Source: Albula goreensis (lineage: Eukaryota > Chordata > Actinopteri > Albuliformes > Albulidae). Taken from it: a DNA stretch of 64,000 nt. The DNA is taken from NCBI GenBank assembly GCA_022829145.1, contig CM040753.1, positions 16,149,884 through 16,213,883 of the forward strand. The letters run 5' to 3'. The notes beneath the pieces were generated by a model, which searched no databases, was not told where the DNA came from, and saw only the letters and a list, made by a program, of their open reading frames with translations. The position numbers and the translations under genes are program-made. Numbering within the stretch: position 1 is the stretch's first letter; every line of letters starts with the position of its first letter. This document shows positions 12,250 through 54,648 of the stretch, piece after piece.

Positions 12250-13320
12250 TATTTCAGCAACCATTTTGTTTGGGACATATTATTACTATGTAAATTTGTA
12301 TGTATAATCATGTTTAATACTTTGTCATATATGCTTTGCATGCAATGACTGCTTGGTGTCTGAGATCCACATATATCACCAGGTGCTGCATATCCTCTCT
12401 GGTGATGCTCTGCCAGGCATATGCAGCTCCCATCTTCAGCTCCTGCTTGTTTCAGGGGCTAGCTACCTTAAGTTTTCTCTTCAGCATATGAAACACATGT
12501 TCAATTGGATTTAGATTGGATGAGTACCATGGCCCACGTGTCTTTGTCTTGTCTAAGATGTTTCTGTGCAATTCAGAATTCATTCTGCTGCAGCTATCAG
12601 CAGTTACATCATCAATGATGTCGATTTTACAGTACCTCAGGCAACTATACATAACTGCACCCATAACAGCCCACCACCATGGCTCACAGATTATTGTGGT
12701 ATGTTTTGGATTTTGGGCAGTTCCTTTAGGCTTCCGTAGTGTGTTCTTGCCATCACTCTGATAGAAGTGAATCTTGGTCTCATTTGTCCGCAAGGCCTTT
12801 TTTTCTCTGCAGACTTGCACAGGTACTTCCTAGAAAACTGTAACCTGGCCAACCTCCGTTTGTAGCTAACTAGTGGTTTGCATCTTCCAGTGTAGTCCCT
12901 ATAGTTTTGTTCTTGAACAACTTCTGAGGACAGCAGTCACTGACACATCCATGCCTGGTCACAAACTTTGGTCATCATTTGCAATTACTGACCTCACCAG
13001 TGCATTTTCCTTCTCAATGAAGTTTCTAAAAGGTGATATTTGTAAGATTGAGGTCTGGTTTATTTCTCTCTTTTTTCAGCCTCAGAATGCCTTCATTGAC
13101 TTCATGAATGAAGATGGCCAACCCTGGCCATAATGTTGACAAATACCAATAGCGGCCTCTAGAAGCAATCAAAAGCCTAGAATCCACTGGACACTAACAG
13201 CTATCCTATAACTGCACTAAGGAGGCAATTGAACACACCTGACCAATTAGAAACACCTGTGAAGACATTCATCTCAGTCATTATCAGTGCTCTGAAAAAC
13301 ATAATGCCTACATCCATTGT
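12250..13320 (-). mobile_element. Dead Tc1/mariner-superfamily DNA transposon
   Basis: The block carries a decayed transposase reading leftward. Its inner limits are set by the coding remnants (12452-13135). The outer limits are estimates: I could not confirm matching terminal inverted repeats or TA target duplications. The 3' side (12330-12480) still shows sequence typical of these elements, encoding the segment around 'QEIWHSI'-type ends in related copies, though here it is out of frame. Old insertion by divergence. Confidence 0.7.
12452..13135 (-). pseudogene. Tc1-like transposase remnant
   Basis: On the minus strand the longest piece (12820-12452, 122 codons) contains 'NETKIHFYQSDGKNTLRKPK', matching the family's 'DETKIxLFGxxxxxxVWRK' block, then 'GTAQNPKHTT', then 'SNLNPIEHVFHMLKRKL', matching the 'PDLNPIENLW' block with the third catalytic acidic residue. 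The first catalytic Asp appears as Asn, and the usual 'QQDNxPxH' second-Asp block is absent, as if deleted between 'LHRNIL' and the NPIE block. Upstream (13133-12830), N-terminal pieces such as 'FIHEVNEGILRLKKE' are split by stops and frame changes. It cannot be an active enzyme. Confidence 0.85.
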
Positions 13321-22674: not shown

Positions 22675-25090
22675 ACCAGTCTATTGGCTGTGAGTAGTTT
22701 CCAATACTATTTTTGTGTACATGAATCTCTGCATGAATGAGAAAAGCAGAGAGAGGACAGATTGAGAGAGAAAGAGAGAGAGACAGCTGACAGAGTAAGA
22801 GAATGTGTAGAATGTGTATGCTGATTAGTTATCATCATTATCCTCTGTGCACTGTGAGACAGGGAAATAGGGCAATTGGAGGGCACTGTGGATCCCAAAG
22901 AATCATGAGTCGTCCCAGGTCTGGTAGCATATAGCAGTGATGGTCGGAAAGAGATGCTATAAACTCCGTAAGGTTGGGGCAACACTCAGCTGTCAGTTAT
23001 TGATTTATTTGACCCAATCAAGACTTTTTGTTTCACTGCAGTCAGTATGGCCATTGGTCAAATTATTGAGTCCACTGATACCATATGGTAGTACCTCCCA
23101 TTTTTCCCAATTAATGTCATGTAGTGTAGATTGTCAGGCTTGTAAATACAGCTCTTCATTCCAGTCCTGTTTTCCAGACTCTATCAGAAGTTGAGCATCT
23201 GGAGCTTAGACTAACTCACTTCTGCTGAGTTAGAAAGGTTGTGATGCATTGCCTCTCTATTCCCGCACTGGTTTCCAGGCACCTGCTCTACATCTTATTT
23301 ATCTTATTTACTGCAAACGTGACACGGGCCTCGCGAGGAGTCACACAATTACCCAAAATTCCCTGCAGCATTAATCGTCTGGTCCCGTCACCCAGAATCA
23401 CAGGAAAAGTTAAGTCCCCACAGTTAAATAGAAATGCTTTCTCAGCAATAAACAACTCAAAGTGGCCATATTTTCTGAGAATGAGAACACAGTGCGTTGA
23501 CCTAACTTTCAATGAATTTCCCTGGGATTCAATCAAACTAACTCAGCCTCTCTAAGGGCATATTCAATACAATCAAACCAGACTTTCTGATTGCATGTAC
23601 TGTTCTGTTTTATAATGAGAAGAAAACATGTGCTTGTCTGTAAACAAATAAGGAATAATAAGAGAAAATTATGTTATGGTGTAAAGTTTATTTTGATTAA
23701 ATTGCATATGCCCTTAAAGACAATGAATATATTTGCTTGAATCTGGCCCAATATCTTGTCTTTCCAATATTGCTGCAGTAAATTGGCAATTATATTTTGA
23801 AAGCTAATGTTCCCCAAACATGACTGTCAGGCTTCATCTGGCTTTCGCTGAATAATTAAGCTCAATTTTCAATGAGTAAAAGTTCATTCATTTTGTAGAA
23901 ATTCTCATAATATGCTCACACATAGATAAAATGATTAAACATTCAAGTACCATAGATATTCTCTAACACAACCCTTGATACAACCTCTTAGTTATTTACT
24001 GTATTGCACAATGGGATGCTTGCATCTTCAGTTAAAAGACAAAAATATTCTGAAAGCAGTCCCTTTGAGACTGAGATTGATGTCCTGTTTGACAAGTAGA
24101 CAAGTTAGTAAGCTATCTGCAATTATTTGATCATTTGTCCGCGGTGACAAGAGTTACACAGACATCTTACATAGAGGAGACCACATATGGTCGTCATACT
24201 TTTTACTCTTGTGTGTATTCCTCAGCATTAGTGAATCATAAAAGAGTAATTTCAGCATTAATTGAAGCCTTGGGTAAAAACTAACCATCTTGTGTATCAT
24301 GTAGCTAATGAAATCAAAGTGATTAGCAATCCAAAGCACCCTCACACATTGTGACTACCATCCCCATTCCTAGGTATGTTGTCAGTGTGTGGGGTTGGTT
24401 GTCCCTATGATTTTAATGAAATTTTTTTTTACATATACAACTGCTTTGTTTTTCAGGTTATGTACAAACAAAACATGTGACAACCACCCCCACCCCCAAC
24501 CTCAAAAAAAAAAAAAAAAAAGGAAGAACAGAAAGAAGAAAAGAAAACATGCGCCAGCCAGACTTTTCGGATTTTGGGATTGCCGCGAATATTTAGCATC
24601 AAAATACAGCCAACCTCTCACTTTTACACACAGAATAATAATATAGGCATTACACTAATGCAATTAAAAGTTGCATGTAAAAGAAAAAGGTATGAAATAT
24701 TTAGTTTCAATACATAAAAAATTAATCTGTGCTCACCAATTGTTGTTGCGACTTGAACTTCTAGGGCCAAAATGGAGCTTCACTGAGCAAGAGGGTGCGC
24801 ATTTCTGTGGCATAATCTAGTTGCAGGGCCCCCAATTTGAGATTTATGAGCTCTGTGGCAACCAAACCATGTGACAACTTCACTTTGGTTTGTAAGTGTT
24901 AACAGGTGTTACAGTTTTTGAAGCAAATTTAGATATCTTCAGCTATGTCAATTAAATAGGCTGCTTTCACTCTGTAGTTATAAACCTTTGATTCCATGAA
25001 TTAATAATTGAATAACGTGTAATCTGGATCTCATGGGAATATTCAATTCTTTTTCTTAGCTTGTAAAACAAAACTTCTTATTAGTTACTT
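22673..25090. other. AT-rich noncoding DNA
   Basis: No supported gene. A poly(A) and purine-rich run occupies 24504-24552. The 92- and 104-codon frames near 22.7-23.5 kb carry no motif. Confidence 0.45.
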
Positions 25091-25225
25091 ATTCAGTAGT
25101 ATGAACTCTCAGACAACGATATAGTATTTTAGGAGGAGTTTATTGATAAGGGATAGAAAAGAATGAACTTGGGCTTAAGCGTCAAAAGGGGGAGGAGTCG
25201 TCCCGTACTCGTGGAGAGGGAAACC
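25091..25225 (-). repeat. B2 split direct repeat of the Ngaro-like element
   Basis: A 135-bp terminal segment starting 'attcagtagtatgaactctc' on the plus strand. It recurs almost unchanged as B1 (25452-25586). It forms the outer 3' end of the element (minus-strand sense). Confidence 0.93.
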
Positions 25226-25321
25226 CCCCCTCCCTTTGGCTGAAAGAAATAGAAATAGCAGTTAGGATCATGAATCCCCCCTAGAAAGAGAGGATGAAGG
25301 TGGAGATGGGGAGGAGGTGGG
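25226..25321 (-). other. Unique middle segment between A2 and B2
   Basis: About 96 bp separating A2 from B2, C-rich at its left end and purine-rich ('gatgaaggtggagatgggga') at its right. It is absent next to A1 and B1, but counterparts can be recognised in both older solo units of the family in this window, so it is an ancestral part of the terminal unit. Confidence 0.8.
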
Positions 25322-25455
25322 ATGCCGGAAATGCTGAGCACGATGGGTAAAGGTACGTGGTGTTTATATACCTGTAGGGACCGGAAGGGGTACGATAGGT
25401 AGAGAGGTTGTCTGAGAGTTCTTCTCCGAATCTCTGTTTTACCAAACTGCAATTC
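25322..25455 (-). repeat. A2 split direct repeat of the Ngaro-like element
   Basis: About 134 bp, plus-strand start 'atgccggaaatgctgagcac', end 'accaaactgcaattc'. It differs from A1 (29096-29230) by about one base. It abuts B1, sharing the ATTC at 25452-25455. Confidence 0.93.
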
Positions 25456-25586
25456 AGTAGTATGAACTCTCAGACAACGATATAGTATTTTAGGAGGAGT
25501 TTATTGATAGGGATAGAAAAGAATGAACTTGGGCTTGCGTCCAAAGGGGGAGGAGTCGTCCCGTACTCGTGGAGAGGGAAACCCCA
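25452..25586 (-). repeat. B1 split direct repeat of the Ngaro-like element
   Basis: A near copy of B2. It joins A2 directly on one side and the coding interior on the other, and the recombinase reading frame remnant runs into it. Confidence 0.93.
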
Positions 25587-25599
25587 AAAGACTGCCAGC

Positions 25600-25850
25600 C
25601 CTGAAAACAGAATGTGAGATTAGGTTTGATATTTCTACGTAATCATCAATGGAATAATGAGCAGTGGGCAAAACGAATGTCATTTGGACAGCGTCTGATG
25701 ACCAGCGACCCAGGCGTTTCATTAAATGATCAGGAAGTCCATTTTTGTGCCGCTGTGGTTGCTGCTCCGATTCTAAATTAAAGAGAAGAAAATTGTTAGC
25801 GGAAAACCTGACATATACGGAGTTGAAAACACGGTGAATTATGAGCATAG
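25600..25850 (-). pseudogene. Tyrosine recombinase remnant of the Ngaro-like element
   Basis: The minus-strand translation at 25740-25681 contains 'GLPDHLMKRLGRWSSDA', the C-terminal block seen in DIRS-order recombinases ('GVPDHLIxxLGRWxSDAY'). In the family this enzyme joins the circular DNA copy into the host genome. Only the C-terminal end is recognisable, so this is a fossil piece of pol. Confidence 0.8.
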
Positions 25851-25999
25851 GAGGAATCAGAAGAATGCGAGTGAGAAGGAGCTGACAGAGTGATGCCTAC
25901 GAGAGGGTTGATGTAACCGGAACGGGACCTGAATGCAGTGGGAGAGTATGTAGGCGAGCTGGTTGTCTAGGTTTGGAAAAGCCTGGGTCTAAACTTCTG

Positions 26000-26222
26000 G
26001 TATCCTCCCGTGAGCTTCCGGGGCCGAACTGGAGAATTTCTGAAATTGGAAACAAGAAAGACTGTCAGGAATTGAGTTATAGTTACCGGGAATGTAATCG
26101 GCACGTACGGTGAACTGATGGCGTATTGACACTCGTGTGAGACGGCAGAAAAGTGACATGCTAGTGATGAAACGTGAACGGCCTTTATTCATTATTGCGA
26201 CGGTGACCCTGTTGTCAGGATG
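26000..26222 (-). pseudogene. RNase H end of a DIRS-order pol, remnant
   Basis: Minus-strand sequence reads 'PDNRVTVAIMNKG' followed further on by 'ADYIPGNYNSIPDSLS' and 'FQFQKF', matching the 'DNxTVVAYINxQGG ... IPGxxNxIADALSRFQ' pattern at the end of the reverse transcriptase-RNase H of DIRS-like elements. Known role: copying of element RNA into DNA. Most of the reverse transcriptase that should precede it is absent. Confidence 0.8.
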
Positions 26223-26589
26223 AAACTAGACTTTCTTTAAGACCGTTCCGACCCCAAAATACAGCAGCAACAACCACGGAATAAATTCAAAACAATGCGG
26301 AGGACTCGGAAGTAGGCGGGAGGAGGAGAATTCAACTGGCCAGGGGGCTGCAAACCGGCGCCTCGACAATAAGCACCAAAACCCACGGCTGGCGGAGCGT
26401 CTACGAACGGACGAGGATCGCGTGCCGCAAACACTACGCCCAGACAAAAACTCGTCCGGTACGACCAAATCGAGCAGGGAAGGGACCTAGGAGGCGAGGG
26501 TCAGCAGACAGCAATTCTGATTGGATTAACACGGAATGCAGGAAACGGTGGGGACGAACGACAACAAATCGACAACGCCGGGCTCAGCC

Positions 26590-26740
26590 TCGGTCGAATG
26601 GAGGTGCACGCAAATAACGTACCGGACGGGTAGGGCGACCAAACAGGGGGAAAAAAAAACCGTGAGTGAGACCATGATGAGAAAGGAAACGAAAAGTGGA
26701 TCGGGATGGTTGCGGAGTGCATGACTGAGCCTTGAAAAAT
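26590..26740 (-). pseudogene. Start of pol of the Ngaro-like element, fragments
   Basis: Just past the gag stop, minus-strand frames show short pieces such as 'LRNHPDPLFVSFLI' that resemble the opening of DIRS-order reverse transcriptases ('LxxHPDxxFVxxLLxGxxxGF'). The core polymerase motifs are not found anywhere in the element. Broken fossil. Confidence 0.55.
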
Positions 26741-26768
26741 AAAAGGGGTTGGACAGATGTGAATATAC

Positions 26769-28160
26769 TCACGCAGCGCCCGAAGGGGCAGTGCGACGGT
26801 AGACAGGACATACTGGGCGCGCGTGAGCGCCCGAGGCGCAAAAGCTACACACGTGGAAAAATTTGCACCCGGTTTTGAAGCAACCGGAGTGGTTAAAATC
26901 ATTACATACTGATTTCCCTCCAACGAGAAGAATGGGGCGCCCTTTGATGTCGACCTCGGGGGAGGTGACGACAGCAGAAGCTGTCGGGACATTATGAGCC
27001 GCACCAGCCACGATGGAGGTAGCGGGAGCTACCATGGCACATAAACGGGTAGCATGCTCAGTAGACTGACAAACACCGCAAACAGAAGCTCTCAACCCCA
27101 GGAAAACCCGACAGTATAAGTCAGAGTCCAGAACCCCCCAATAAGGACATACGTAGAACTGAGCTACCTTAGCGGCACATTTGGCAGAAAACATTTTATG
27201 GTATGCATAAAAATGGGAACCCCCAAAACGGATGGCTAAATCCGCCACGATAGCCAAATAGTCAGCCAGCTCTCTGCGACGTTGAGGTAACACAGAGCAG
27301 ATAATGTCGGTGTAACGACTAAAAGCTAAGCAGGATTCAGGGAAAGTTAGCACCTTAGAGGAGGAGGAGGAAGGAGCCCTGGGCGCGACCGTGATGCCGT
27401 CACACTCCAGAACCCTGCGTTCGTAGGAGGGGGAAGGTGAAAGCAGGGATGCCAAACACACGTCCGCACCTTGCAAAATCTCTGCGAGCGCAGGTGGGCA
27501 GACACTGGCGTAGGCTCGAAAACAGGGGCATTCGAGGGAGGAGGCATCACACGGCCGTGGACAGGCTGTAGGACTGACACTGGTGGCGGAAGGAGCCGGG
27601 GCAGGAAAATTGGGGACCTGGGAGAGAGTGAGAGAGAGAGACAGCAGCAGACACGGCAGTAGTAGGAGGATACAGAGGCGGATACGGAGCAGGATGCAGG
27701 GAAGGATACGTAGCGAGAGCTGGGGCAGCTGGGAACGGTCATGGGGAGCCAGGGGAGCTGGTCGGAGGGCGCGTGGTTGCCTGGGAAACCCGCCTGCTCC
27801 GGCCGGGACGGCAGCAGCTGGGGGAACGGACCGCAGCGCCTGAGTCCCAGAAGCGTGCAGGGGCTGTCCGGCGGGCGCGAGGTGCGCCGACTGGAACTCG
27901 CCGACTCCGGGAGGGACCAGGGCAGCCGGGGAAAAGCAACCGCAGTGCCGACGTCTTGGGAGAGTGCAAGGGCAGGACAGAGCGCCCGATGGCGCCGGCT
28001 GAGCCCGCCGACTCCGGCAAGGGTGGCGACTGGGGAGAGGGGGCGCAGAGCCGATGCCTCGGGGGCGTGCAAGAACGGGCATGCTGATGCCGAGCACCAG
28101 GAGGGGGCGTCGACCTCCGCAAAGGCTGTGGCGTCTGGGGGGAGGCTGCGTAGCCGACAT
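26769..28160 (-). CDS. Gag-like nucleic-acid-binding protein of the Ngaro-like element
   Basis: A 463-codon open frame with an ATG start, the longest in the window. The N-terminal half (about residues 1-250) is Pro/Ser/Ala/Arg-rich and low in complexity; the middle has a more globular composition. The C-terminus carries three zinc-binding patterns: CX2CX4HX4C at about 361-374 ('CGVCQSTEHATRLC'), CX7CX4CX3H at 419-436 ('CNDFNHSGCFKTGCKFFH') and a second CX2CX4HX4C at 438-451. This CCCH-plus-CCHC tail is typical of ORF1 proteins of DIRS-order elements, thought to bind element RNA. The pol region follows at once. Several other open frames overlap it on both strands and are shadows of the GC-rich composition. 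Confidence 0.82.
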   Translation of the reverse strand: MSATQPPPRRHSLCGGRRPLLVLGISMPVLARPRGIGSAPPLPSRHPCRSRRAQPAPSGALSCPCTLPRRRHCGCFSPAALVPPGVGEFQSAHLAPAGQPLHASGTQALRSVPPAAAVPAGAGGFPRQPRALRPAPLAPHDRSQLPQLSLRILPCILLRIRLCILLLLPCLLLSLSLTLSQVPNFPAPAPSATSVSPTACPRPCDASSLECPCFRAYASVCPPALAEILQGADVCLASLLSPSPSYERRVLECDGITVAPRAPSSSSSKVLTFPESCLAFSRYTDIICSVLPQRRRELADYLAIVADLAIRFGGSHFYAYHKMFSAKCAAKVAQFYVCPYWGVLDSDLYCRVFLGLRASVCGVCQSTEHATRLCAMVAPATSIVAGAAHNVPTASAVVTSPEVDIKGRPILLVGGKSVCNDFNHSGCFKTGCKFFHVCSFCASGAHARPVCPVYRRTAPSGAA

Positions 28161-29095
28161 CTCGGGAGCGTGCAGAGACGGAGACGACCGGCGCCGAGGG
28201 CACCAGGTACGGCCTGCCTACTCCGGCGAGAGCGGCTGCAGCAGGGGGAGGAGGCCGCTGCGCTGAAACCCCGCGAGCGGGCCGAGGCTGGACGCCAAGC
28301 GCTGAGGGCGCCTGGCGGGACTCGGGCCGGCTCTAGCGAGGGAAACGGCAGCAGGGAGGGGAGAGGACCTCATTGCCTGGCGCTCGGGAGCGTGCAATGG
28401 CAGGTTAGCTGACGCCGAAGGCGCTAGGTAGAGCCTGCCGACTCCAGCCCGGCCGGCACGTGAGGGAGAGAGGGGGAGGGAGGGGAAGAGAGCGAGACTG
28501 GGCGAGAGCCGCAGTAGCACCCTGGCAGCGACACTGCAGGAAACAGGCGCAGCATTGACTGCCTCAGGGTCCAGCGAAGGTCCTCTGACGGCAGCGCTGC
28601 GCCGGACGTTGACTGGGAAGAGTGGGCGGGACTGCCAGGTTTTGAGTGCGGAGGGCTTCCGCAAGCAGCAGAAACAAGTCTCTTTTCCGCGCAGTCCGGG
28701 GAAAAGAAATCCCTCGGAGTACCAGAGCTTCACGGATTCGGGGGCACAGTCCAATTGGAAAGCTGCAGTTCTCCGGTCCTGGAAAGAACTGCCGGCTGAC
28801 GGCGAACGATGGCCTCAGGAGCCGCCGGGCTGCGGGAACGGGACCTCGGTCGACGGGAGTCAAGAGAAGAGGAGGAAAGAGATCTCCGAGAGACGGCCTG
28901 GATCTCAGCCTGCGAGAGAGGCGTCGGATCGGTCGGCGACCATGAGCCGGGATGCAGGGGCTTACACGGGAACCAACCCGTGAGGAAGTCGAGGAGAAGC
29001 CTGCCTCGGGGGCGCGGACAGGTCTTCGTCAGAGGCATGGATTTGGATATCCAGTTTCTAAGAGCGGTGCGATCTAGGCGACGCAGTAAAACTGA
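28161..29095 (-). other. GC-rich leader of the Ngaro-like element
   Basis: About 935 bp between A1 and the gag start, rich in CpG and GA/CT runs. Frames of up to 223 codons exist on both strands but share the low-complexity Arg/Gly/Ser or Pro/Ser composition forced by the base content. I see no domain. It probably holds the promoter and untranslated leader. Confidence 0.5.
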
Positions 29096-29230
29096 ATGCC
29101 GGAAATGCTGAGCACGATGGGTAAAGGTACGTGGTGTTTATATACCTGTAGGGACCGGAAGGGGTACGATAGGTAGAGAGGTTGTCTGAGAGTTCTTCTC
29201 CCGAATCTCTGTTTTACCAAACTGCAATTC
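29096..29230 (-). repeat. A1 split direct repeat of the Ngaro-like element
   Basis: Outer 5' end of the element in minus-strand sense, 135 bp and almost identical to A2. It ends at ATTC (29227-29230), the same four bases found at the other two junctions. Confidence 0.93.
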
Positions 29231-32200
29231 TCTCTTAATTATCTCTTAAATGCAGTACTTTGTTCCCCCCTCCTTACATTCAGCATTTTTGGTTTGATGC
29301 ATAAATAAATACATTTTATCAATTTTATTCCTTATCAATAGTACTAAGGCATGCCCCTTTTTCTAATTTTGCTGTTCCCATTTTTGTCATCTAAGCTTGA
29401 TACTGATATTGTTATTTATGAAGGTCTGAATAAGGATTCATGAATACTGTTGGGGTGCAAGGCCTCAATCTCCATAACTACTGCATTTGTTAGTCCAAAT
29501 CTTCAAGTCATTGAGTCATTAATATTATATAACAGCTCCTACCATTTCTGGCTCAATGACACCTCACTACTTCCCATCACAAGTGCACTTTCATATGCTA
29601 CTTCAGTTTTCATACCAAGTTCGATTGACAGGTCACACTGTGTCTCTAAGGTTCATATCACTGAGATTCTATGTGTGTACTTTAGTTTTTGTACTGTCAC
29701 TCACTTAAGCCAAAAACACAGTCAGCTGTCACACCAGAGTCCATTGAAACAGCCCCTGGGCCTTTGAACTGAAGATGTCTTGAGGAGTGACAACTGTCCT
29801 ATTGTGTTTCTTGTCATCCCCAGTAATTTAAGGCATCAGTGGTGAATGAAATGAGTTCTCAGAGTTTGTTCTTGGAGTTGGACAGCATTCATTACAGTGA
29901 TAGATAGCACACTTTCTCTCATCCTCTCCTTGCCTTAGTTACATAAATTTTTACCAAGGACAACAACTGTTGGCACCATGAGTGCACACACTCGTATACA
30001 AGAATCAATCGAGTTTCTAATCTCATGCTGTACCTTTTTATCAGCTGTGAGTGAGCAACTGAAACCCTTTTGATTTCCAAAGGTGTGAGGGTGATATTAT
30101 CTTAGAAAACACTGAATAAAGAAGGGAACATTGAAAGCAGGCACTGTTATCCATGCTGTTGTTTGAAATCATTTTATACTCTGTTACATGATGTGCAGTA
30201 AAGGTTCCCAGCCCTTTTGTGACAGCAGTCTGAGGACACTGCTTCTGAACGACAGTTGTTTGTAAAACTAAGTAATGCTGCACCCAGTTTACATAATCTT
30301 TACTAATGAAAGAGCCATGACATTTACATAGGGTTTAAATTGAGTTCTTGTGTTGGTCTTTATTTCATCTCTATGAATTTTTGAGGCCAATGAATTATAA
30401 ATAGCATGCAGTGTACACATTTCAATAATATAGCAATGGGAACAAATGGAAATTCTGAAATATTTAAAAACCTTGCATTTTTTGTACAAACAAACCTTGA
30501 GTTACAGAGAGTACAAACTCCAACCTCCTGGACAAAGGATCTGTATCACAATTGTAAGAAAATAAGTTTGCACATGCCAGTTGTACAGATAGAAAACAGA
30601 ACATTGTGCAACTTGAATTATATTCATGCCTTCATTTTCACATCATCTTTGGACTCTATTACCAATCTGTTTCAATTACATAGGTGTTGATTTGATTTGT
30701 CATAAGTGTATACATTTTATTTGACCTTTAAACATTTTTTCTCCAGAGGGCCATTATAAAATTCACTGGGGGTAGAGTGGGTAAACAAACTGTTTTAATA
30801 TTTATTCATTTCAACATTTACTTATTTCTATTTCATTTCATCATTGCGTTACTGTGTCTCATACATGATGGGGACTTCACAAAAATTTCTTTACAATTAA
30901 TTGCTCATTGTAGCCCCAGCCATAGTTCAAGAAACCTCATGCTCCCAAAACTGGCTACATCAAATCTTAGCCATTTAAAGCACATCCAACCAAAGATTAC
31001 ATCCTGTCTGTCACCCACCTAGACCCAGATGTAGCAGCACTCATTTAATCAAACATAATAAGGGCAGTAGGACATGATATTCATAATATTATGAGCATAA
31101 CTGAGCATGGCTCTGCACTTGCAAAAGTGGTTGGATGAGCACCTGTTCACTGAGGACTTACAAAGGCTTAACACAAATCTTAGCAAATGCAACTCTGACA
31201 ACCAAATGTATGGCATGTTTGTTAGTATGGCCTATTGATACCTTTCTGTTTTAACACAAAACTCCTGAGGCTTAAGGTCTCTGTCAATCTGACCCTACAC
31301 AGTGTTCTGAGTCTCGCCACCTGAACCATTGAGTTTGATCCCCGACAACACAGTCCTGGCAAGGGGATGTAAGGCAATAAGAAAACAGAAAAACAGCCTC
31401 AGTGATTTGCTGTCCCTTTCTAAAGTAAAGTCATTTTAAAGTAAAACATGATGACAGAGTTATGTTGACAGGTAATAACCCTACAGCCTGCACCAATTTA
31501 TTCTGTTTGGGGTAACCACAAGGCACTTAAAAATAAACAAAGTAGATGGAGTATATGAGGGTTGAATGGTACACAAGTTTGATTTTGAGTGTGCCCTTTT
31601 TTAAATAAATACATGACCAAATATGTTCAGTACAATTTTTGGAAAAATGAGATCTGGCATTGTTCATCCTTTTTGACCTTGACATAGTAACCTTGACCTG
31701 GTGGTTACTATGTACGGTGCAAATCTTATTCCTTAAGCAGCTTTGAAGTAAATGCCACTAGATATAAAAGTAAGTTAGACTGACAAAAACGCTGGCCTCA
31801 ATGCATGCATACTTTGACAGCGCTTTGCATTTTTAATCTGAGGGCCATTTATTTGCTATTCATGTTCAGCTGCACTGGAGATGAGTTTCCAAATTATTCC
31901 AATATTCTATTCTGGTCTCTTCTTATTAATATTTGAATCTGGTAATTAACTTCAATCTTTTTCAAATGACAAAGGAAAGTGAGTAATTGCAAGATTTTTG
32001 TGGCATTATGCTTTAATACTTCAAAGATATGTTCTTATCCTTTTGCCACAACCCTGAAGAGGACACTCACTGGAGGACTTATGTGCTTTTAAAACCATTG
32101 TATATATTTGAAGAATTAGTCTGAAAGCCAATCTGATAAGGGAATTCTGTAGCCATTATCATAACAATTATTTTTTCTCAATAGTTGAGCTCATTTGCAC

Positions 32201-32690
32201 AATGGCATTGAGTTCAGTCTTGCTGAAGCTGATTTAGCCATTTTGAAATGCTGTTCTGTAAAGAGGGTTGGGTTGAGAAATAATGTTTTATGTTCAATTA
32301 AAATGTGTGATAGATCAAAATACTGATATGCAATAAAATACTTCATGTCATAATATTACATTGTGTAACAAAAGTATCCAATAAAATGGCATCCAAGTGC
32401 CTATCCAATAAATCTGCCCTCAATGTTTACCATCCAAACACACAGTGCAATGACAAAAGAGATATTGATTTCAACATCTGGTTATTTTTTTCTGTTTAAA
32501 ACTCTGATTTGAATGATATCTGTGTTAGGGCTAATTTAATTTTATATAACTTTGTAATGTAACTGCTAGAGCCATGTGACTGTTCTATTTTGCACTGTTT
32601 TTTGTGAAACTGAGATCTCAGAATTGTGAAACATACATGGCAGCAATTAATTAAGATAAATGGAGTTTGTTAAAAACAAAAGTTCGGGTG
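29231..32690. other. AT-rich noncoding DNA
   Basis: No gene or mobile element recognised. Open frames of up to 105 codons (29450-29767) have no motif. Confidence 0.45.
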
Positions 32691-32789
32691 AAGTATTTTC
32701 AGACAACCCCTCATTCAACTACCTCTATCCGTCCAATCCGATTTTCTCCGCAGGTATTAAATTGGCACGTACCTTATCTCCAGTCATGC

Positions 32790-32976
32790 ATTACAACTGC
32801 GGCAACACGTCATCAATAGGGTAAAACTAATCTGTCTCACGATGGTCGAAACCCAACTCACGTTCCCTATTAGTGGGTGAACAATCCAACGCTTTGTGAA
32901 TTTTGCTTCACAAAGATAGGAGGAGCCGAAATCGAAGAATCAAAAAGCGACGTCGCTATGAATGCTTGGCTGCCAA

Positions 32977-33013
<37 letters not shown>

Positions 33014-33117
33014 CTGCTTGAAGCTCAAAAAGCCAGAAGGATCGTGAGGCCACACTTTCACGGTCTGTATTCATACTGAAAATCAAGATCAAGAGGGCTT
33101 TTGTCCTTCTGCTCCAC
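32790..33117 (-). pseudogene. Partial 28S rRNA pseudogene
   Basis: The plus strand is the complement of the 3' third of nuclear 28S rRNA. Long matching words include 'cgttccctattagtgggtga', 'caaaaagcgacgtcgctatg', 'agccagttatccctgtggta' and 'tcacggtctgtattcatact'. This covers the peptidyl-transferase-ring and neighbouring helices, not mitochondrial 16S. Scattered substitutions (for example 'gctttgtgaa' where 28S has 'gcttggtgaa') suggest very roughly 85-90% identity, so it is an old dispersed copy and not a functional unit. Similarity stops sharply near 33117 and fades before 32790. It lies downstream of the R2 target site in 28S, so it is not simply R2 flank. Confidence 0.9.
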
Positions 33118-33858
33118 TGCTTCCGGCATCTACACCGTCAGCTGCCGTTAGCACTAGTTGCTCCACCACGGACATGCAGCTACCCTTCTGACACTGGATT
33201 TCCGACCCATACAGGACAAGTTCCATAATGTTTCTTTGTGTACATCTCAGAAACCTTTACGTTACAGACTTTATTATGGACAAATCTCGACATTGCTAGG
33301 TTACTGGAGGCCTACCCACCAGTCATGCTCAGATTACATTTTGTAACAAGTCTTCCGATAACATCACTACTGTGACTGCATTTCCCTCAGATGACCTGTG
33401 TTTTTTCTTGGAATTTCCCTCTGCTGTGCCTGTTTGCGTCTGTACTTCGACCGACTGCACCTCTCCCATCATTACAAAGCTCAGCCCCGACTCGCAGCGG
33501 ACCCAGAGAGTTGGCCGGATTCACCTGCCACCTGTATCGTTTGGCCCCACCAGTCTCATTCCTGCATCTTCCTTACCTCTGTACTTCAGACACTCCTGGA
33601 GTTGGCGGGTTCTCTACTGAATCTCTGCTACCTTCCTCTGCCCTCTTTTTCCACATGCACCCCCCTCCTGAATACAACCTGCCCATCCACACTATTTGTT
33701 GGGTTTATTTGCCTTCCTTTACAGCCTGAAAAAAGCTCTGAGCCCGGTGAATAAACAGAATCTTACATGTCATAGCTGGTTTTTGGTCTCTGTTGTCAGT
33801 CTAGCTCAGTTGACCTGCCTTACTACCTGATGAACTACTGCAGTTCTATTCAGCCGTG
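33118..33858. other. GC-richer spacer between the 28S fragment and the minisatellite
   Basis: About 740 bp, clearly richer in C and CpG than the surroundings. A motif like the minisatellite unit start ('actagttgctccaccacgg') appears at about 33151, just after the 28S sequence. An AATAAA occurs near 33750. Plus-strand frames of 82-118 codons overlap in all three phases, which argues against a real protein. Confidence 0.5.
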
Positions 33859-33860
33859 AT

Positions 33861-34460
33861 AGCTGCCCTGCCCCTGTCTGCTCCAGAAGCCGCTCTATAC
33901 CCACCTCTACTCTTTCTACTGCTACTACCTGTCCAGGAGCCGCTGGGTTCCACCTAGCGTCAGCGCCACTAGCCGCACTACCCCTGCTTGTTTCAGAAGC
34001 CACCCTATACCCATCTCTACTCTTTTTACTGTTACCATCTGTCCAGGAGCCAGTGGGTTCCACCTAGTGGCAGTGCCACTAGCTGCCCCACCCCTGTATT
34101 CGCCAAAGGCCCCTGCTATTCCCCCTTCTACTCTTTATACTGCTACTACCTGTCCAGGAGCCAGTGGTTTGCACCTGGCAGCAGAGCCTTTGGTTGCACC
34201 ACCCCTGCACGCTCCATTGGTCTCCTCTATTGCCTCCCTCTACCCTTTCCACTTCCAACAGGAGCTGGTGGATCACACCTGATGGCAGCACTATCTGTTG
34301 CTCCACCCTTGCAAGCTCTGGGACCCTCTGCTCTGTTTTCTGCCCTGCTTCCCCCTGCTTTTTCCGCAGCTGGCGCAACTGGAGCAGGTGGATTATAGCC
34401 AGTATCACTGCTGGTAGCTCCACCCTGCATGCTCCCCTCCACTCTGTTGGTCCCAGCCCC
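33861..34460. repeat. Minisatellite, unit of about 110 bp, five to six copies
   Basis: Unit starts lie at about 33861, 33971, 34081, 34192, 34295 and 34413, giving lengths of about 110, 110, 111, 103 and 118. Each begins with a 'tagctgccccacccctg'-like core, and the first three carry 'ctgtccaggagccagtggg' followed by a 'cacctagtggcagtgcca' end. The first three units are closest and the later ones more diverged. Frames of up to 144 codons run through the array on both strands because the unit length and composition permit it. I do not treat them as genes. Confidence 0.85.
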
Positions 34461-36927
34461 TGGGCTCCCCCTTTTTTTCCACTGTCGCTTTTTTTCTACT
34501 GTGGCTATTTGACATTATGTCTCATGTCTACCTCAATGTTCACTGTTTTTAGTTTTAGAACCCAGCAGTCTAAATTATGCCCTGCCTTCTACTTTTAGGG
34601 GGCCGAAATCATAACAAAGCATGTCTGTTCACTTTGATAATAATACTGTTGCTAACATAAAAGATTGAATTCACACCACCATTGTACCACTCCTGTCATT
34701 TCACATAGGTCTCAAATTTGATTTGTTGTGGAATGGGACCTTTTGTTCAAGGAACATTAAGCTGCCATCAGGAACGCTGGGGTGTTCCTGCCATCCACGG
34801 CCCCGGGTTTACACTGTGGGTAGATGCGAGAATCCCCTTAACCTCCCTGCCAGGGTAACAGTTTGAGATTTATGGAGATTGAGATTGGTAGCAATATCTC
34901 ACAGAAAGTCATCTTAGCTACTGTCACTGGGTATTGAGCAGTCACAGGTTGTTTTGGGAAGCCTCTCTAGATAAAACCCAGAATGTCCACAGGGTGAATG
35001 GCAGCCCTACACATTTGTATGGGTTTATCACTTCTTGGCTGGTTGTTTTTGGGGGGTTCACCTCACCCAAAATTGTGAGTTATGATGCTGCCCCCTTGGA
35101 CTCCAAGCCCAAGATCAAATGTCATTGTTCAGTGTTGTTCTGTAAATTTTTTATACTGAATATGCTCTGTTTTACTGTTGTACCTTGGACCATGATGATG
35201 GAGTCTTCTTTCATGTTTGGACTATTAAAATGCTGTCCACTGTCATGTCATGTATTGACACTTTATTTTGTATTAAAACATTAAATAGTAGAAGAGACCT
35301 AATATTGCATTAATCAGGAATGATGGGAGTGATGCATAAAATATGTGGTACTCACTGACATCTAGGGTTCAAAATGAGGGGCGGTTGGGTTTCTTTCATC
35401 CCATATAAGTCAAGAGGGAACCACCATAAGAAACAAATGAAAATTTATGGGGCCCCTATTTCATTTTTTAATCAAAGTAGTTACATAACTGCTGTGTTTC
35501 AGTGTCTTCCATTTGTTGACCAGGTCACCATGGCTTCTGCATCATGCACCTCAGCTTCAAAATGAATTTGTCTGCATTAGAGCTGGTTTTGAGCATGATA
35601 CTGCTACATGGATTTACTGCGTACTCCATTAGCCATTAGCCTTGTCCTCCTCTGTCTCTTCTCAGTCCTCTTAGTTTGACAGCAGCCCTGTCAGTCTCTC
35701 TCCCTTACACTCTCTATGAGAGAGAGGAAGCAACTCTCATACAACACATCAAGGCTATTCTTCAGGTGGCTTGCATACTTCCATTAAATTAAACCCATGA
35801 CACAAATCATGATCATGCACTTGTAAATGGTTGAGCATCAGACTTTATAACTTTGTATTTCTATTTAGCAATGGTTTTTAACATAATTCAGTGTTGAGGA
35901 GTGATGATGTAATCCTTTGATATGAAGCTAGATTGGCAAATTAGAGTTACTTTTTTTGCAAAATATTTGTCACATAACCAGCAGTAGTGTACTGTAGGAT
36001 CTTCAGGACAGTTGGCTAGTATGTACTATAATATATTGTTTATTATACAATATTATTTATTATCTCCAATGAAAAAAATATAAGCATTACTTATGACAAT
36101 AAAAATCATATTTTCCATTGATAGTAATGGAGTAGGGTAAAAGCAGAGGTTTGAACATTTATCAATCAAAATTACTTGATGCACCTGTTCCTGCTGGCTG
36201 CAATAAAACATGCAAAATATGTTAATATATTGTTAAATCCATCAGATCTTATCTTTTTATAACTTTTATTGGTTCACATGCATATACAGTGTTTCTATTA
36301 GCCATGTTTAGTTACAGTTGGTTCCCCCCCACAACCCCCAATATCCAGATAGCTGATGTCATGAACTTCTGGGGTCATGCCACAGTTCAACATACTGCAA
36401 ATTCAAGAGCCATGAGTCCCCCTATCCAGCTGGTGCAAAAGCTGATTAATCTACTAGCATACGGTACACAGTAACACACATCAGCCTCCAGATCATTACT
36501 GCAAAACCAGCCTCAATTTAGAGCAACAGAATTATGAAATAAACAATGGAAACCTCCTAAGCCCTTAAAGCCACCACAATGCAAAATAAATTGCTCTCTG
36601 GTGCATGAAACAGACTGCACGGCATATCCAAACCGTCCTTTGCCCATGACTTTGCACAGAAATGGAACCTGGGAAATCACAGAGCACAGCTATACAAAGG
36701 TCTGTCAAGGGACTGGAGTTTTGGCATCTTTAAGAAATATTATTTGGAAAGAAATGTACACTCATTTGAATGAAAAATGAGAAATTTCACTTCTACTTGC
36801 CATATCCACAACTGACAGACTGAAAGATTCTGTATTACCCCCAAGGGTGACGCAGCCTAAGGAAGATGCCTCCCAGATCTGACATAAAAGCAGCATCTTC
36901 TAAAGCATGTTGCAACTGTACAAACAA

Positions 36928-47230: not shown

Positions 47231-47583
47231 GTATTTATGGAGAAACAATGAACTATACAATGCATATGTTATGCTTGTGAGTGCACTTAAATATCCAAAT
47301 GAATGAGAAAATCACAGAGGGAGAATAAGTCATGACCCCACCTGTCTGAACATTCCCCCCATGACTAAAAGAAACAGAAAGAAACAGGATCAGTCAGGTT
47401 GTGTTTAAAGAAAGAGATGGTGGAGATGGGGGAGTTGGAGGGATGCTGGAAATGCAAAGCACGATGTGGGATGAGGTACATGGTGTTTATGTACTTGTAT
47501 GGGACCAGAAAAGCTGATGTGATAGATGGAAAAAATTGTCTAAGAATAATTCTCCTGAACTTTTGTTTAAACTCCAACAACTA
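47231..47583 (-). mobile_element. Old solo terminal unit of the Ngaro-like family
   Basis: The right part is plainly related to A2 and the middle segment: 'gatggtggagatgggggag' matches 'ggtggagatggggaggagg', then 'gatgctggaaatgcaaagca' matches 'gatgccggaaatgctgagca', followed by 'catggtgtttatgtacttgt' against 'cgtggtgtttatatacctgt'. The left part, corresponding to B2, is much more diverged but lies at the expected distance. Length is about 352 bp, with no internal coding region. Orientation is as in the 25-29 kb copy. Confidence 0.78.
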
Positions 47584-50266: not shown

Positions 50267-50630
50267 ATACAGTGGAATACATGTTCATATAACATAATGC
50301 ATTTAAAATGAGTTACGTCAGAAGTGGCAAGAAAGGAGAGACATTAGTAGCATTTGATCTTGGGATTTGAGAGAGGGGTTTGTACCTGAGTGTTGAGGTA
50401 GACCCCCTAGGGGACCACTGAAAGGAGAAAATAATGTGGAAAGGGGAATGGAGGACAGTAGACAGGTGGAGATGTGGAGAAGCAGGAATGCAGGAAGCAG
50501 TGAGAATGTTGGAATCTAAGTATATGGTGGTTATACCTGCTTAAAAAATCGGTTTGGTAGGTCATGACAATTATGTGAGTTGTTATTGAAGATATTTCTT
50601 GTGAATCTTTGTTTTAATAAACACCAATTA
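50267..50630 (-). mobile_element. Old solo terminal unit of the Ngaro-like family
   Basis: Every part of the terminal unit can be followed: 'acagtggaatacatg' for 'cagtagtatgaac', 'tttgatcttggga' for 'atgaacttgggct', 'gtagaccccct' for 'ggaaaccccc', 'gacaggtggagatgtggaga' for the middle segment, then 'tatggtggttatacctg' and 'gtgaatctttgtttta' for A2. Total length about 363 bp, against about 361 for the young unit. Orientation is the same. Divergence is high, so it is much older. Confidence 0.78.
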
Positions 50631-53460
50631 AATTCATATGTAGTATGTAGTATTAAATTCATATGTACGTATGTGGTATGCCCCATTGCTCACCTAACAT
50701 TTTGGCTGCACACTGCTTCAATTCCTCTCTGTGTGATAGCCTCTTCTGTAGGGGTCACTCAGGAAGCAGGAATTCGCACAAACACCATGATGCTCTTGAC
50801 AACTAGTAGATTAAAAAAGAAAATGAGACATGGCCTTGCCTCTGTGTCTATAGCAGCTGTTGCCAAACTGGGGGTGAGGACTCTCTGAGGCAGTCAGGGA
50901 GAGTTTGATGCGGATCCTGAGATGACGCTTGAAACAAAGATGCTGTAATATAATCCACTTACCTTAGACATCATTATCAGTTATATCAGACACTCTGGGC
51001 TGGATTTATCAAAGGCTTTAGCACATATTAAAGTGTTTACACATGCAATTTCAGTGACATGATTTGTCATTGCAGAAAATAAACTACCTCAACCAATCAC
51101 ATTTTGGATCCCTTTTGGATCTGCAAAGCAGTTATACACATGTTTAATGCCTTAGTATACATGTATAGTCAGGGGTTCGCAAATCCTGGGGGGTTGGGGG
51201 GGGTGACCTGTCCTCCCTAATCCTGGGGAGAGCACAAATTGACCCTCAATGAAATTGTGAAATTGTAAAGAAAAAAAGGGTTGTACATATCCAACTAACT
51301 TGATATATAATGCGTGAAGACAGTACAAACAAAATGTTTTTTTACAGTTAAAAAATGTGGTCACCACCCAGTTCACAATGGTTTGACCCAGTCACCCATC
51401 ATACAGTTTGGCTAATTGATATTGTGTGCGTCTGTCAATGCTGGATATCCAATAAGTATCCTAGTTAAGGTAGTAACGTCAGCTTTAAATTATACAGCAC
51501 GTAATTTCTATGGATCATTAGAACAGAACACGTTTGTGCCCTTAGTGCATTTTTGTCACTCCACTGAATTATATCCCAAAACATAAGGTAATAAGGTAAG
51601 GTACTAAGGTAATAGCAAGCTTTCTTGCAAATGATACACACCCATATTGTCCCCCCAGCCCCCTGGGAAAATGTCTATGTTTTTCATGCATGAAAACATA
51701 TTTGAATGAGATTACTTTACATTTTGGTAAGAGGGGCCCTCTTATGGAGATATTTGTGATGCAAAGCTCTGGCCCAGGGAAACTCCCCTCCTGAAACGCA
51801 CTGTACCAATGTTACATTAACAAGGCCTATGCCACAAAGCAATATCAGTGTTTAAAATTAAAATATACTTTCCAGTTGGAAATTTGCATTTTTGTTTTTA
51901 TAATTAGATTTTCTGTACTTTTTAGGTCATCATATTTTTCACCTGATTTTATTTTATTACATTTTTAAATAAAAAATACACTCCAATAAATTCCCATAAA
52001 GTATCCCAATATTCATGTGTCCTGGATACAGTACTGTAATCTCTGCCCTTTGTTTCTTATTTAATGCAACCAACAGTACCTGCTAAAAGTGCTGAAGGAC
52101 AAGCTGTGGTAACAGTTTGTAACTGATATTTTACTTAACAATGTGTTCAGACATCCCTATAATGTTATGTTTATATTATATTAATATACATCTTTAAATG
52201 AATGTTAATCTTTCTATAAGTTAATATTTATTTTGTTTTATTATTTTATATCAGGTTTGAAAATAACCCCTACTCAAATTTGCATGTCATAGTTAGTCCA
52301 TCTAGTCATCAGGGACTTGTATTGACTTGCAGTGGTTCCCATGGATTAAATTATTTTCAAATAGAACAGTGGAGTAGTGGCATCCCACTGCCAATTTTAG
52401 GGATTGTTTCCATAATATACTTTGCTAGGTGAAAATAACTGTTTTCATTTAAGAATTATTTGTATTTACTTAAAACATGTTAAAACACAATTGTTCGCGA
52501 GGTCAGACGCTTGTATAATGGATACAAGCTTGACTTGATTCAAGCTGCAGAAACAGCTCTGTGGTTTTATTATCTGTTTTGATAAGCAGATTGAAAGAAG
52601 CATTTTCTGCTTGAATTACATATGAATCCCAACCTATAAATTGAGAGCTTAACCTCTGTTACAGTTGGATACAGCCCATTTACAACATCTCATAAGGCAG
52701 AGCTTTGTGTCTGTGTTGCTTTAATTAAAATAGATTAAAAAAGAGAACACAAGTGAACTGTAGAGGAATTGAGGGAAATTAATGAACAGGGCATAAATAA
52801 AACTTTTTCAGAATCAAAAGCACAGCTTCCTGTTGGTATAGAAAACTGCTTGAGTTTCATTTATGGTAAGTGAATTATAATTTACTGGCCCAGAGAAAAG
52901 GCTACCCAAGAAAAACCAGTGCAATTTCACAATGCACCTTCCTATTCAGGCAAACTGACCCTTTTCAAAACGGGCACAGTAAGTTGATGGAATTTCTGTG
53001 ATAAGCTGATGTTGCTGCTGGCTTATTACTGCTGGCTGACAGTGAAAGGACACCACTACTCTACAAGAGATTTCTCACATGTTGGTCTCTCCACAAGAAC
53101 TAATGACACCTGTTTTAGTTTTATGGGAAGTCTTTTCTGACAGGGTTGAGTATATTCTACCCAAATTTGACCCAAGGATTAACTATTTAAAATTAGATTT
53201 TCAAGGTGTCGTACAATGATCATGGCAGCTGAAGCCCACTCAATTTCATATCCTTCCAATTGTGGAGGATGTGATCCCTGCAGGGAAGGTTTTCTGGGGA
53301 TCCACACAGTGGGCATCTTTAGAATATTCTGGATGTTTGATACTGTGCCCCGTAGATTGATGTTGATTTGGATTTCTCTGTTCTGCATTTCATAAGGTAC
53401 AGTTCTGTTTAACATTGCACACTGCATGTCCAGTCATGGCCCATCATGACTTCCTTTAAG
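50631..53460. other. AT-rich noncoding DNA
   Basis: No gene recognised. At 51169-51200 a 'caggggttcgcaaatcctgg' start recalls hAT-type ends, but no matching far end was found. Confidence 0.4.
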
Positions 53461-53602
53461 CCCATGGCCTCACCTGTCAGTTCATAAGTCCATGGCCTCG
53501 CCTGTCAGTTCATAAGCCCATGGCCTCACCTGTCCTTAGGCCTCACCTGTCAGTTCATAAGCCCATGGCCTCGCCTGTCAGTTCATAAGCCCATGGTTCC
53601 AT
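53461..53602. repeat. Minisatellite, unit of 28 bp, about five copies
   Basis: The unit is 'cccatggcctcacctgtcag' plus 'ttcataag'. Copies start at 53461, 53489 and 53517; the third is shortened, followed by two more and a partial one. Differences are single A/G changes in 'cctc(a/g)cctg'. It contains NcoI-like CCATGG palindromes but no unique spacers, so it is not a CRISPR-type array. Confidence 0.93.
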
Positions 53603-54648
53603 GAATATGACCACGTTGACACTCTAATGAAAGATAAGGGCACACTAACTTCTGGGGTATGTCCTGTGCTGTCAGACTTAATAAAAGGTCAGTTACTACT
53701 TTTGATGAATCATGATCTTTTGTAGGCTGGCTGACCAACAGGAGGTGGCAGTTCCAGCCAACTCAGCCATTGACCTATAACCCAACACCAGCTTTAAATC
53801 ACCCTTTACACACACACATCTAGAGATGTGTCACTCTTATTAATAGTTCCGCAGTGGTCTAAGAAAGAGATTAGTTTGGGAGCAAATCCTGGCACAGAAA
53901 CAGGACACATGTGTGCTGTTGAAAAGGTGAACAGGGGTTCACCCTGTTCCCTGACTCAGCACTGTGGACACCTAAATAAAAGTCACACAGGGGGCCTGTG
54001 ATGTGACATTGTGACAGCATGGCTGGGGGCCACTGCGTCTCAGACACACAGGCTGTGATTGACAGCTCGCAGCAGGGGCAGTGGGTAGGGAGTTTCCAGA
54101 TCCCCGGGGGAATGGGTATCTGTTAAAAAAGTAAACTTTTTACTGTGGTGATCATTCTAACTGAAATGGCACTTCTTGGCTTTGCCACTCATGGAGTGAT
54201 GTCATCCATCCCAGAGCCATGAAATCATTTCTTCATCTGGGTAGATTCATTACCCCCAACCCCCATCTCCCACACTTTTATTTGTGATTACCTTCCTAAT
54301 AAAGGGCTTAACAAACAAGAATGACTTTACTGTATGGGCATGGTGGTGTATCAATGACAGTATTACTGCACATTTAATGTATGACAGGCCACTCAGTAAC
54401 TCAATGAAATTATTATTTCCAATAAACTAGGTTGTATAAGAATCAAGCTAGTCATAAAAAGTTCAGGATTCCCTTAAACCCCATGACAGCCCAAGAGAAA
54501 CTGCAATGAGCAGCTTTCACTTCTCATGTGCTATCTGAACCACTTGGTTTCAGTTGTCATATTAAAATTTTTGTCATACTGGTGCGATGATTGGTGAATG
54601 TACATGTGATAATGATATAGCCTTTTGCATCTAAATACAATACATATA
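53603..54648. other. Noncoding DNA
   Basis: No gene recognised. Confidence 0.4.

What the first reader, a model, noticed from the sequence alone, without database searches (positions are those of the whole stretch)
25091..29230. Young Ngaro/PAT-like element with a complete A1...B1-A2-B2 split-repeat layout
Seen directly: segments A (134-135 bp) and B (135 bp) each occur twice, in the order A1, interior, B1, A2, B2 on the minus strand. Known: this layout marks the Ngaro and PAT-like groups of tyrosine-recombinase retrotransposons, distinct from LTR elements and from the inverted repeats of DIRS1. The interior carries a gag-like frame, an RNase H end and a recombinase end in the expected order. 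An automatic annotator could easily miscall it as a solo LTR next to an unrelated GC-rich block.
Basis: partly seen in the sequence, partly recalled or inferred. Interest (0 to 1): 0.72.

Follow-up and report, generated by a model that had tools for sequence, protein, structure and literature searches.

The report
Defective split-repeat jumping gene, fish-like genome
A young but broken copy of a known, unusual class of retrotransposon (apparently the tyrosine-recombinase type with split direct repeats) sits near older remnants of its own family; it looks like a good example of a known kind, not a new one.

Summary
Ends and junction share GAAT, with no longer target duplication. A1/A2 differ by one indel, B1/B2 by one substitution and two indels: a young insertion. 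The order is that printed for Ngaro, PAT-like and VIPER elements, not LTR-interior-LTR. It is not complete: a gag-like frame is open (482 codons), but only about 360 bases, without RT signal, separate it from an RNase H-like motif, and the RNase H- and recombinase-like pieces are frame-broken. Pfam named none of these domains in 13 sequences; I recognised them by recalled motifs. Three older relatives lie in the window: A+spacer near 47.4 kb, A with weak spacer and B at 50.3-50.6 kb, and a plus-strand copy at 32.7-35.2 kb whose A is followed by antisense 28S rRNA. Solo AB repeats and an A2-spacer-B2 short element (SIRE) are already in print. Ngaro versus PAT stays open. The whole-genome search did not complete (nine tries).

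The parts
29096..29230 (-). A1, left terminal repeat; TATATAA at 29138-29144, about 40 bp before its inner end
25586..29095 (-). interior (C-rich on the coding strand)
27754..28474 (-). degenerate tandem array, period about 103-110 bp, in the 5' part of the gag-like region; similar array in the older plus-strand copy
26769..28160 (-). gag-like ORF, 463 aa from ATG (482 codons open), ending in Cys/His clusters including C-x7-C-x4-C-x3-H; 'gag-like' is recalled resemblance
   Evidence: 0 of 500 dinucleotide shuffles of the interior reach 482 codons, 2 of 500 reach the 223 codons of the 26700-27440 part alone; no Pfam family
26675..26732 (-). possible start of the RT/RNase H frame (RLSHALRNHPDPLFVSFL); recalled motif
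   Evidence: no Pfam hit
26350..26407 (-). RNase H-like N-terminal motif (FVDAPPAVGFGAYCRGAG); recalled resemblance
   Evidence: no Pfam hit
26016..26123 (-). RNase H-like C-terminal tail (RHQFTVRADYIPGNYNSIPDSLSCFQFQKFSSSAPE); recalled resemblance
   Evidence: no Pfam hit
25684..25777 (-). tyrosine-recombinase C-terminal-like motif (FRIGAATTAA in one frame, GLPDHLMKRLGRWSSDAVQ in another); recalled resemblance
   Evidence: no Pfam hit
25452..25585 (-). B1; AATAAA at 25500-25505
25322..25455 (-). A2; TATATAA at 25364-25370
25228..25321 (-). 94-bp spacer between A2 and B2, absent next to A1 and B1; pyrimidine tract ending CAG at 25240, then a purine run up to B2
   Evidence: follows A in the 47-kb relic (0 of 300 shuffles reach its score)
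25091..25227 (-). B2, right terminal repeat; AATAAA at 25139-25144
32657..35170 (+). older diverged copy: A 32657-32806, antisense 28S rRNA 32829-33174, array similar to the young one about 33799-34457, B-like about 35053-35170 (borderline)
   Evidence: the B-like end was not listed by the profile scan
50268..50629 (-). older solo unit without interior: A clear, spacer and B weak taken alone
47355..47578 (-). older solo A-spacer unit without interior; B beyond it not supported

Best explanation
A recently inserted, non-autonomous copy of a split-direct-repeat tyrosine-recombinase retrotransposon (DIRS order; Ngaro-like or PAT-like). Shown: the repeat layout, the GAAT shared by B end, A start and target, no larger duplication, a TATATAA in each A, an AATAAA in each B, and the open gag-like frame. 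Inferred: RNA starts near the inner end of A1 and ends in B2, so it lacks most of A1 and the end of B2. Both are restored by copying from A2 and B1, which keeps the pairs identical at insertion (one search reports that such an annealing model was proposed for Ngaro and PAT elements). A recombinase supplied by an intact relative joins B to A in a circle and recombines it into a GAAT-like target. Homologous exchange between A1 and A2 leaves A-spacer-B, which would explain the solo units nearby.
For: Layout and identities. GAAT at the B1-A2 junction, at both ends and once in the joined flanks. TATATAA and AATAAA positions. Gag-like frame longer than in 500 of 500 shuffles. A present in three other places in the window (0 of 300 shuffles each), two of them with no interior match beside them. 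Same layout printed for Xenopus Ngaro (A 236 bp, B 152 bp), Cafeteria Ngaro with solo AB repeats, PAT and VIPER.
Against: No Pfam hit for an RT, RNase H or recombinase in 13 sequences; one PDB query and four collection scans gave no confirmed relative. The defining enzymes are therefore untested. No other copy of the same full layout was seen; the genome search did not complete. The 94-bp spacer is not in the A1-ORFs-B1A2B2 formula. The older copies do not show GAAT cleanly at both ends, and B is weak, borderline or absent in them.
Confidence: 0.85

Rival explanations
1. Two tandem units of one family: a full-size unit A1-interior-B1 was integrated by the recombinase at the GAAT end of an existing short unit A2-spacer-B2. 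The split repeat is then an accident of this locus.
For: Each half begins with A and ends with B around GAAT. Short A-spacer units, one with a weak B, occur alone at 47.4 and 50.3-50.6 kb. The older plus-strand copy looks like A-interior-B with no A2-spacer-B2 directly after it.
Against: A1/A2 and B1/B2 are 99% and 97% identical, while BLAST matches of A (with or without spacer) to the other copies are 62-81% identical. The same order is printed for several groups. The older copy could equally be a B1 x B2 recombination product.
Confidence: 0.1
2. An LTR retrotransposon with LTR = A-spacer-B whose left LTR is truncated after A.
For: A-spacer-B reads as an LTR-like solo unit; in the young copy it holds TATATAA and AATAAA.
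Against: B1 directly abuts A2 at GAAT, which an LTR layout does not predict. In the older copy A is followed by 28S rRNA rather than by a spacer and B. The interior ends in recombinase-like, not integrase-like, motifs (recalled).
Confidence: 0.04

Closest known systems
Ngaro-like retrotransposons of Xenopus (DIRS-53_XT; PMC9210276: abstract, part 1 of 2 of the Results and the Ngaro section seen)
   Same: A1 / B1-A2-B2 split direct repeats of similar size (236 and 152 bp); gag, RT/RNase H, recombinase order
   Different: Here no RT was found, no SGNH hydrolase hit among the 13 frames searched, and a 94-bp spacer separates A2 and B2
PAT-like elements (PMC4157794, passages seen)
   Same: Split direct repeats; Pat1 gag carries a zinc finger, and the gag-like frame here ends in Cys/His clusters
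   Different: No methyltransferase hit among the frames searched, but the interior is short; placement by RT not possible
SIRE of VIPER (PMC6681497, passages seen)
   Same: Short unit made of A2, a unique internal stretch of about 30 bp, and B2
   Different: Kinetoplastid family; here the spacer is 94 bp and the host looks vertebrate
Solo AB repeats of Cafeteria Ngaro (PMC8547959, passages seen)
   Same: Isolated AB units scattered in the genome, read there as possible recombination products
   Different: Only two candidates here, both diverged, one with a weak B and one without a supported B

Membership tests
Split-direct-repeat tyrosine-recombinase retrotransposons (Ngaro/PAT/VIPER-like) | A1-interior-B1-A2-B2 direct repeats | tested here: met
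   with a 94-bp spacer between A2 and B2
Split-direct-repeat tyrosine-recombinase retrotransposons (Ngaro/PAT/VIPER-like) | No target-site duplication beyond a short core (stated for DIRS1-like; extended here by inference) | tested here: met
   flanks joined leave one GAAT; young copy only
Split-direct-repeat tyrosine-recombinase retrotransposons (Ngaro/PAT/VIPER-like) | Tyrosine recombinase domain | tested here: inconclusive
   no Pfam hit on frame-broken pieces; motif recognised by recall only
Split-direct-repeat tyrosine-recombinase retrotransposons (Ngaro/PAT/VIPER-like) | Reverse transcriptase and RNase H | tested here: inconclusive
   no Pfam hit in pieces from gag stop to RNase H-like tail; RNase H-like motifs by recall only
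DIRS1-like | Inverted terminal repeats and internal complementary region | tested here: not met
   no inverted repeat pair of 25 nt or more in 24800-29600
Ngaro-like versus PAT-like | RT phylogeny; absence (Ngaro) or presence (PAT) of a methyltransferase domain | not testable with these tools
   no RT here; interior shortened, so absence of a methyltransferase hit says little
LTR retrotransposon | Same complete repeat at both ends | tested here: not met
   the left end matches A only; spacer and B give no match there

The most novel reading that the evidence does not exclude
The family spreads largely as partial units: an RT-less, gag-bearing split-repeat element plus SIRE-like A-spacer-B units with their own TATA box and poly-A signal, moved in trans. 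Its copying also sometimes captures host RNA at the A1/interior boundary, seen as antisense 28S rRNA directly after A in the older copy.
Probability: 0.12. Interest if true: 0.45.

Novelty: new member of a known kind. Interest (0 to 1): 0.25.

Why it matters
It is a clear example of a repeat layout that LTR finders can misread, with a young copy, solo units and an older copy within 64 kb. That makes the predicted recombination products of split repeats testable in one genome. It changes no general view of these elements.

Tried and rejected
Domain profiles: Pfam on five ORFs, four stretches with X at stops and four pieces between gag and RNase H gave no DIRS-order family. The only listings were Prok-E2_C (E 0.21), a Lin-28 zinc knuckle (E 0.97) and Autoind_bind (E 0.077), each below its cut-off. 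PDB by sequence, one RNase H piece: three chance-level hits (best E 0.54). IMG/VR with the gag C-terminal part: 11 pattern matches, none confirmed. Prokaryote genomes with the RNase H tail: 270 pattern matches, none confirmed. DNA pattern for an RNase H motif: 0 matches. DNA pattern for the recombinase motif: 3 contigs; the motif lay in frames of 12, 14 and 190 residues, the last judged by eye not to be a recombinase, no family search run. Papers holding any of four motif strings: 0. A bacterial promoter/terminator scan of A1 found nothing and does not bear on a eukaryote.

Results against the reading. One search made 40 comparisons with 300 shuffles each. B2 was not found in the 47-kb relic (194 of 300 shuffles reach its score), was weak in the 50-kb relic (11 of 300) and borderline in the older copy (1 of 300). 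The spacer alone was not significant in the 50-kb relic (24 of 300). The spacer also beat 300 of 300 shuffles against the stretch after A in the older copy, which is 28S rRNA, and was reached by only 2 of 300 upstream of the 47-kb relic; I take both as chance among 40 comparisons, which also weakens the borderline hits. A was reached by 3 of 300 and 1 of 300 in overlapping stretches downstream of the older copy (35719-35822), unresolved. The profile scan (E up to 1) listed neither that stretch nor the older copy's B-like end; it was trained on the 47- and 50-kb copies, so its scores for them are circular. In one search (100 shuffles each) the array alignment was 77.7 against a shuffle maximum of 59.7 over the longer old stretch, but only 66.7 against 66.4 over the short one; three other stretches of the young and old interiors did not exceed shuffles. 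The older copies do not show GAAT cleanly at both ends.

PMC9210276 gives an RT domain of about 120 aa, which is about 360 bases, so length alone does not exclude one. The claim now rests on the absence of a hit or motif (run for this).

Full report
Observation. On the minus strand two segments each occur twice: A at 29230-29096 and 25455-25322, B at 25585-25452 and 25227-25091. A1/A2 are 99.3% identical over 135 columns (one indel) and B1/B2 97.1% over 137 columns (one substitution, two indels).

Ends. B1 and A2 overlap by GAAT; the same four bases begin A1 and end B2, and joining the flanks leaves one GAAT. This is what recombinase-type insertion with a short core would leave; there is no longer target duplication. 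GAAT occurs about once in 216 bases of the window, so four bases alone are weak evidence. The older copies do not show it cleanly at both ends.

Signals, read directly. Each A holds TATATAA about 40 bp before its inner end; each B holds AATAAA. The spacer has CTAAC, a pyrimidine tract and CAG, then a purine run up to B2; B1 is also preceded by a pyrimidine tract and CAG. Roles in splicing or plus-strand priming are guesses.

Coding content. The gag-like frame is open for 482 codons (463 aa from ATG); 0 of 500 dinucleotide shuffles of the interior gave a frame that long, and 2 of 500 matched the open length of the 26700-27440 part. It ends in Cys/His clusters. From its stop at 26769 to the RNase H-like motif at 26407 there are about 360 bases. 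Four pieces covering this stretch had no RT hit in Pfam, though an RT domain of about 120 aa as quoted for Xenopus would just fit by length. The RNase H-like and recombinase-like motifs lie in different frames with stops between them. I name these motifs from recall: in all, 13 sequences had no RT, RNase H or recombinase hit. The copy thus looks non-autonomous, while its repeats are nearly identical: a young insertion, apparently of a defective copy moved by enzymes made elsewhere (inference). Three of the four differences between repeat pairs are indels, two of them in short homopolymers, so assembly error cannot be excluded.

Relatives in the window. BLAST with the element found A plus spacer at 47577-47357 (68% over 230 columns), A plus part of the spacer at 50629-50464 (62% over 166), both minus strand, and A at 32658-32804, plus strand (65% over 149); no interior match lay beside the first two. 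Against shuffles, A is clear in the three places (0 of 300 each). The spacer is clear at 47 kb (0 of 300), not at 50 kb (24 of 300). B is weak at 50 kb (11 of 300), borderline in the older copy (1 of 300) and not found at 47 kb (194 of 300). The solos fit A1 x A2 recombination products.

Older plus-strand copy. A (to about 32806) is followed within about 25 bp by antisense 28S rRNA (RF02543 in two pieces, 32829-32988 and 33011-33174, at the gathering threshold; one looser match spans 32800-33245). Then comes sequence with a 110-bp tandem array (33860-34216) that aligns with the young copy's degenerate array (score 77.7, best of 100 shuffles 59.7, over 33799-34457; 66.7 against 66.4 for the short stretch), and a B-like end near 35053-35170. 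No A2-spacer-B2 follows directly. It may be a B1 x B2 recombination product or a separate unit. The rRNA orientation is opposite to what a simple jump during first-strand synthesis would give (reasoning, not a test), so a chance insertion is at least as likely as capture.

Comparison. A1 / B1-A2-B2 split repeats are described for Xenopus Ngaro (PMC9210276, part of the Results seen), PAT and Ngaro (PMC4157794, passages), VIPER (PMC6681497, passages), Cafeteria Ngaro (PMC8547959, passages) and fungal Ngaro (PMC3783388, passages). Solo AB units and an A2-spacer-B2 short element, SIRE, are in print. The finding is therefore best filed as a further member of a known kind. Which branch it belongs to cannot be told without an RT.

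Host. No tool named it. Long TG repeats, a Tc1-like transposase remnant at 12455-12829 (recalled resemblance) and eukaryotic 28S sequence suggest a vertebrate, probably a ray-finned fish (inference).

Noticed in passing
32829-33174 (-): Antisense 28S rRNA fragment (RF02543, two pieces) lying directly after the A repeat of the older plus-strand copy.
   Followed up: partly
33860-34216 (+): 110-bp tandem array, 3.2 copies, inside the older copy; similar to the degenerate array of the young copy.
   Followed up: partly
12455-12829 (-): 125-codon frame resembling the C-terminal part of a Tc1-like transposase (resemblance recalled, not searched).
   Followed up: no
35719-35822 (+): Weak A-like stretch downstream of the older copy, reached by 1-3 of 300 shuffles; not listed by the profile scan.
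   Followed up: no
53438-53624: Short 28-bp tandem repeats with a 45-bp overlapping unit.
   Followed up: no
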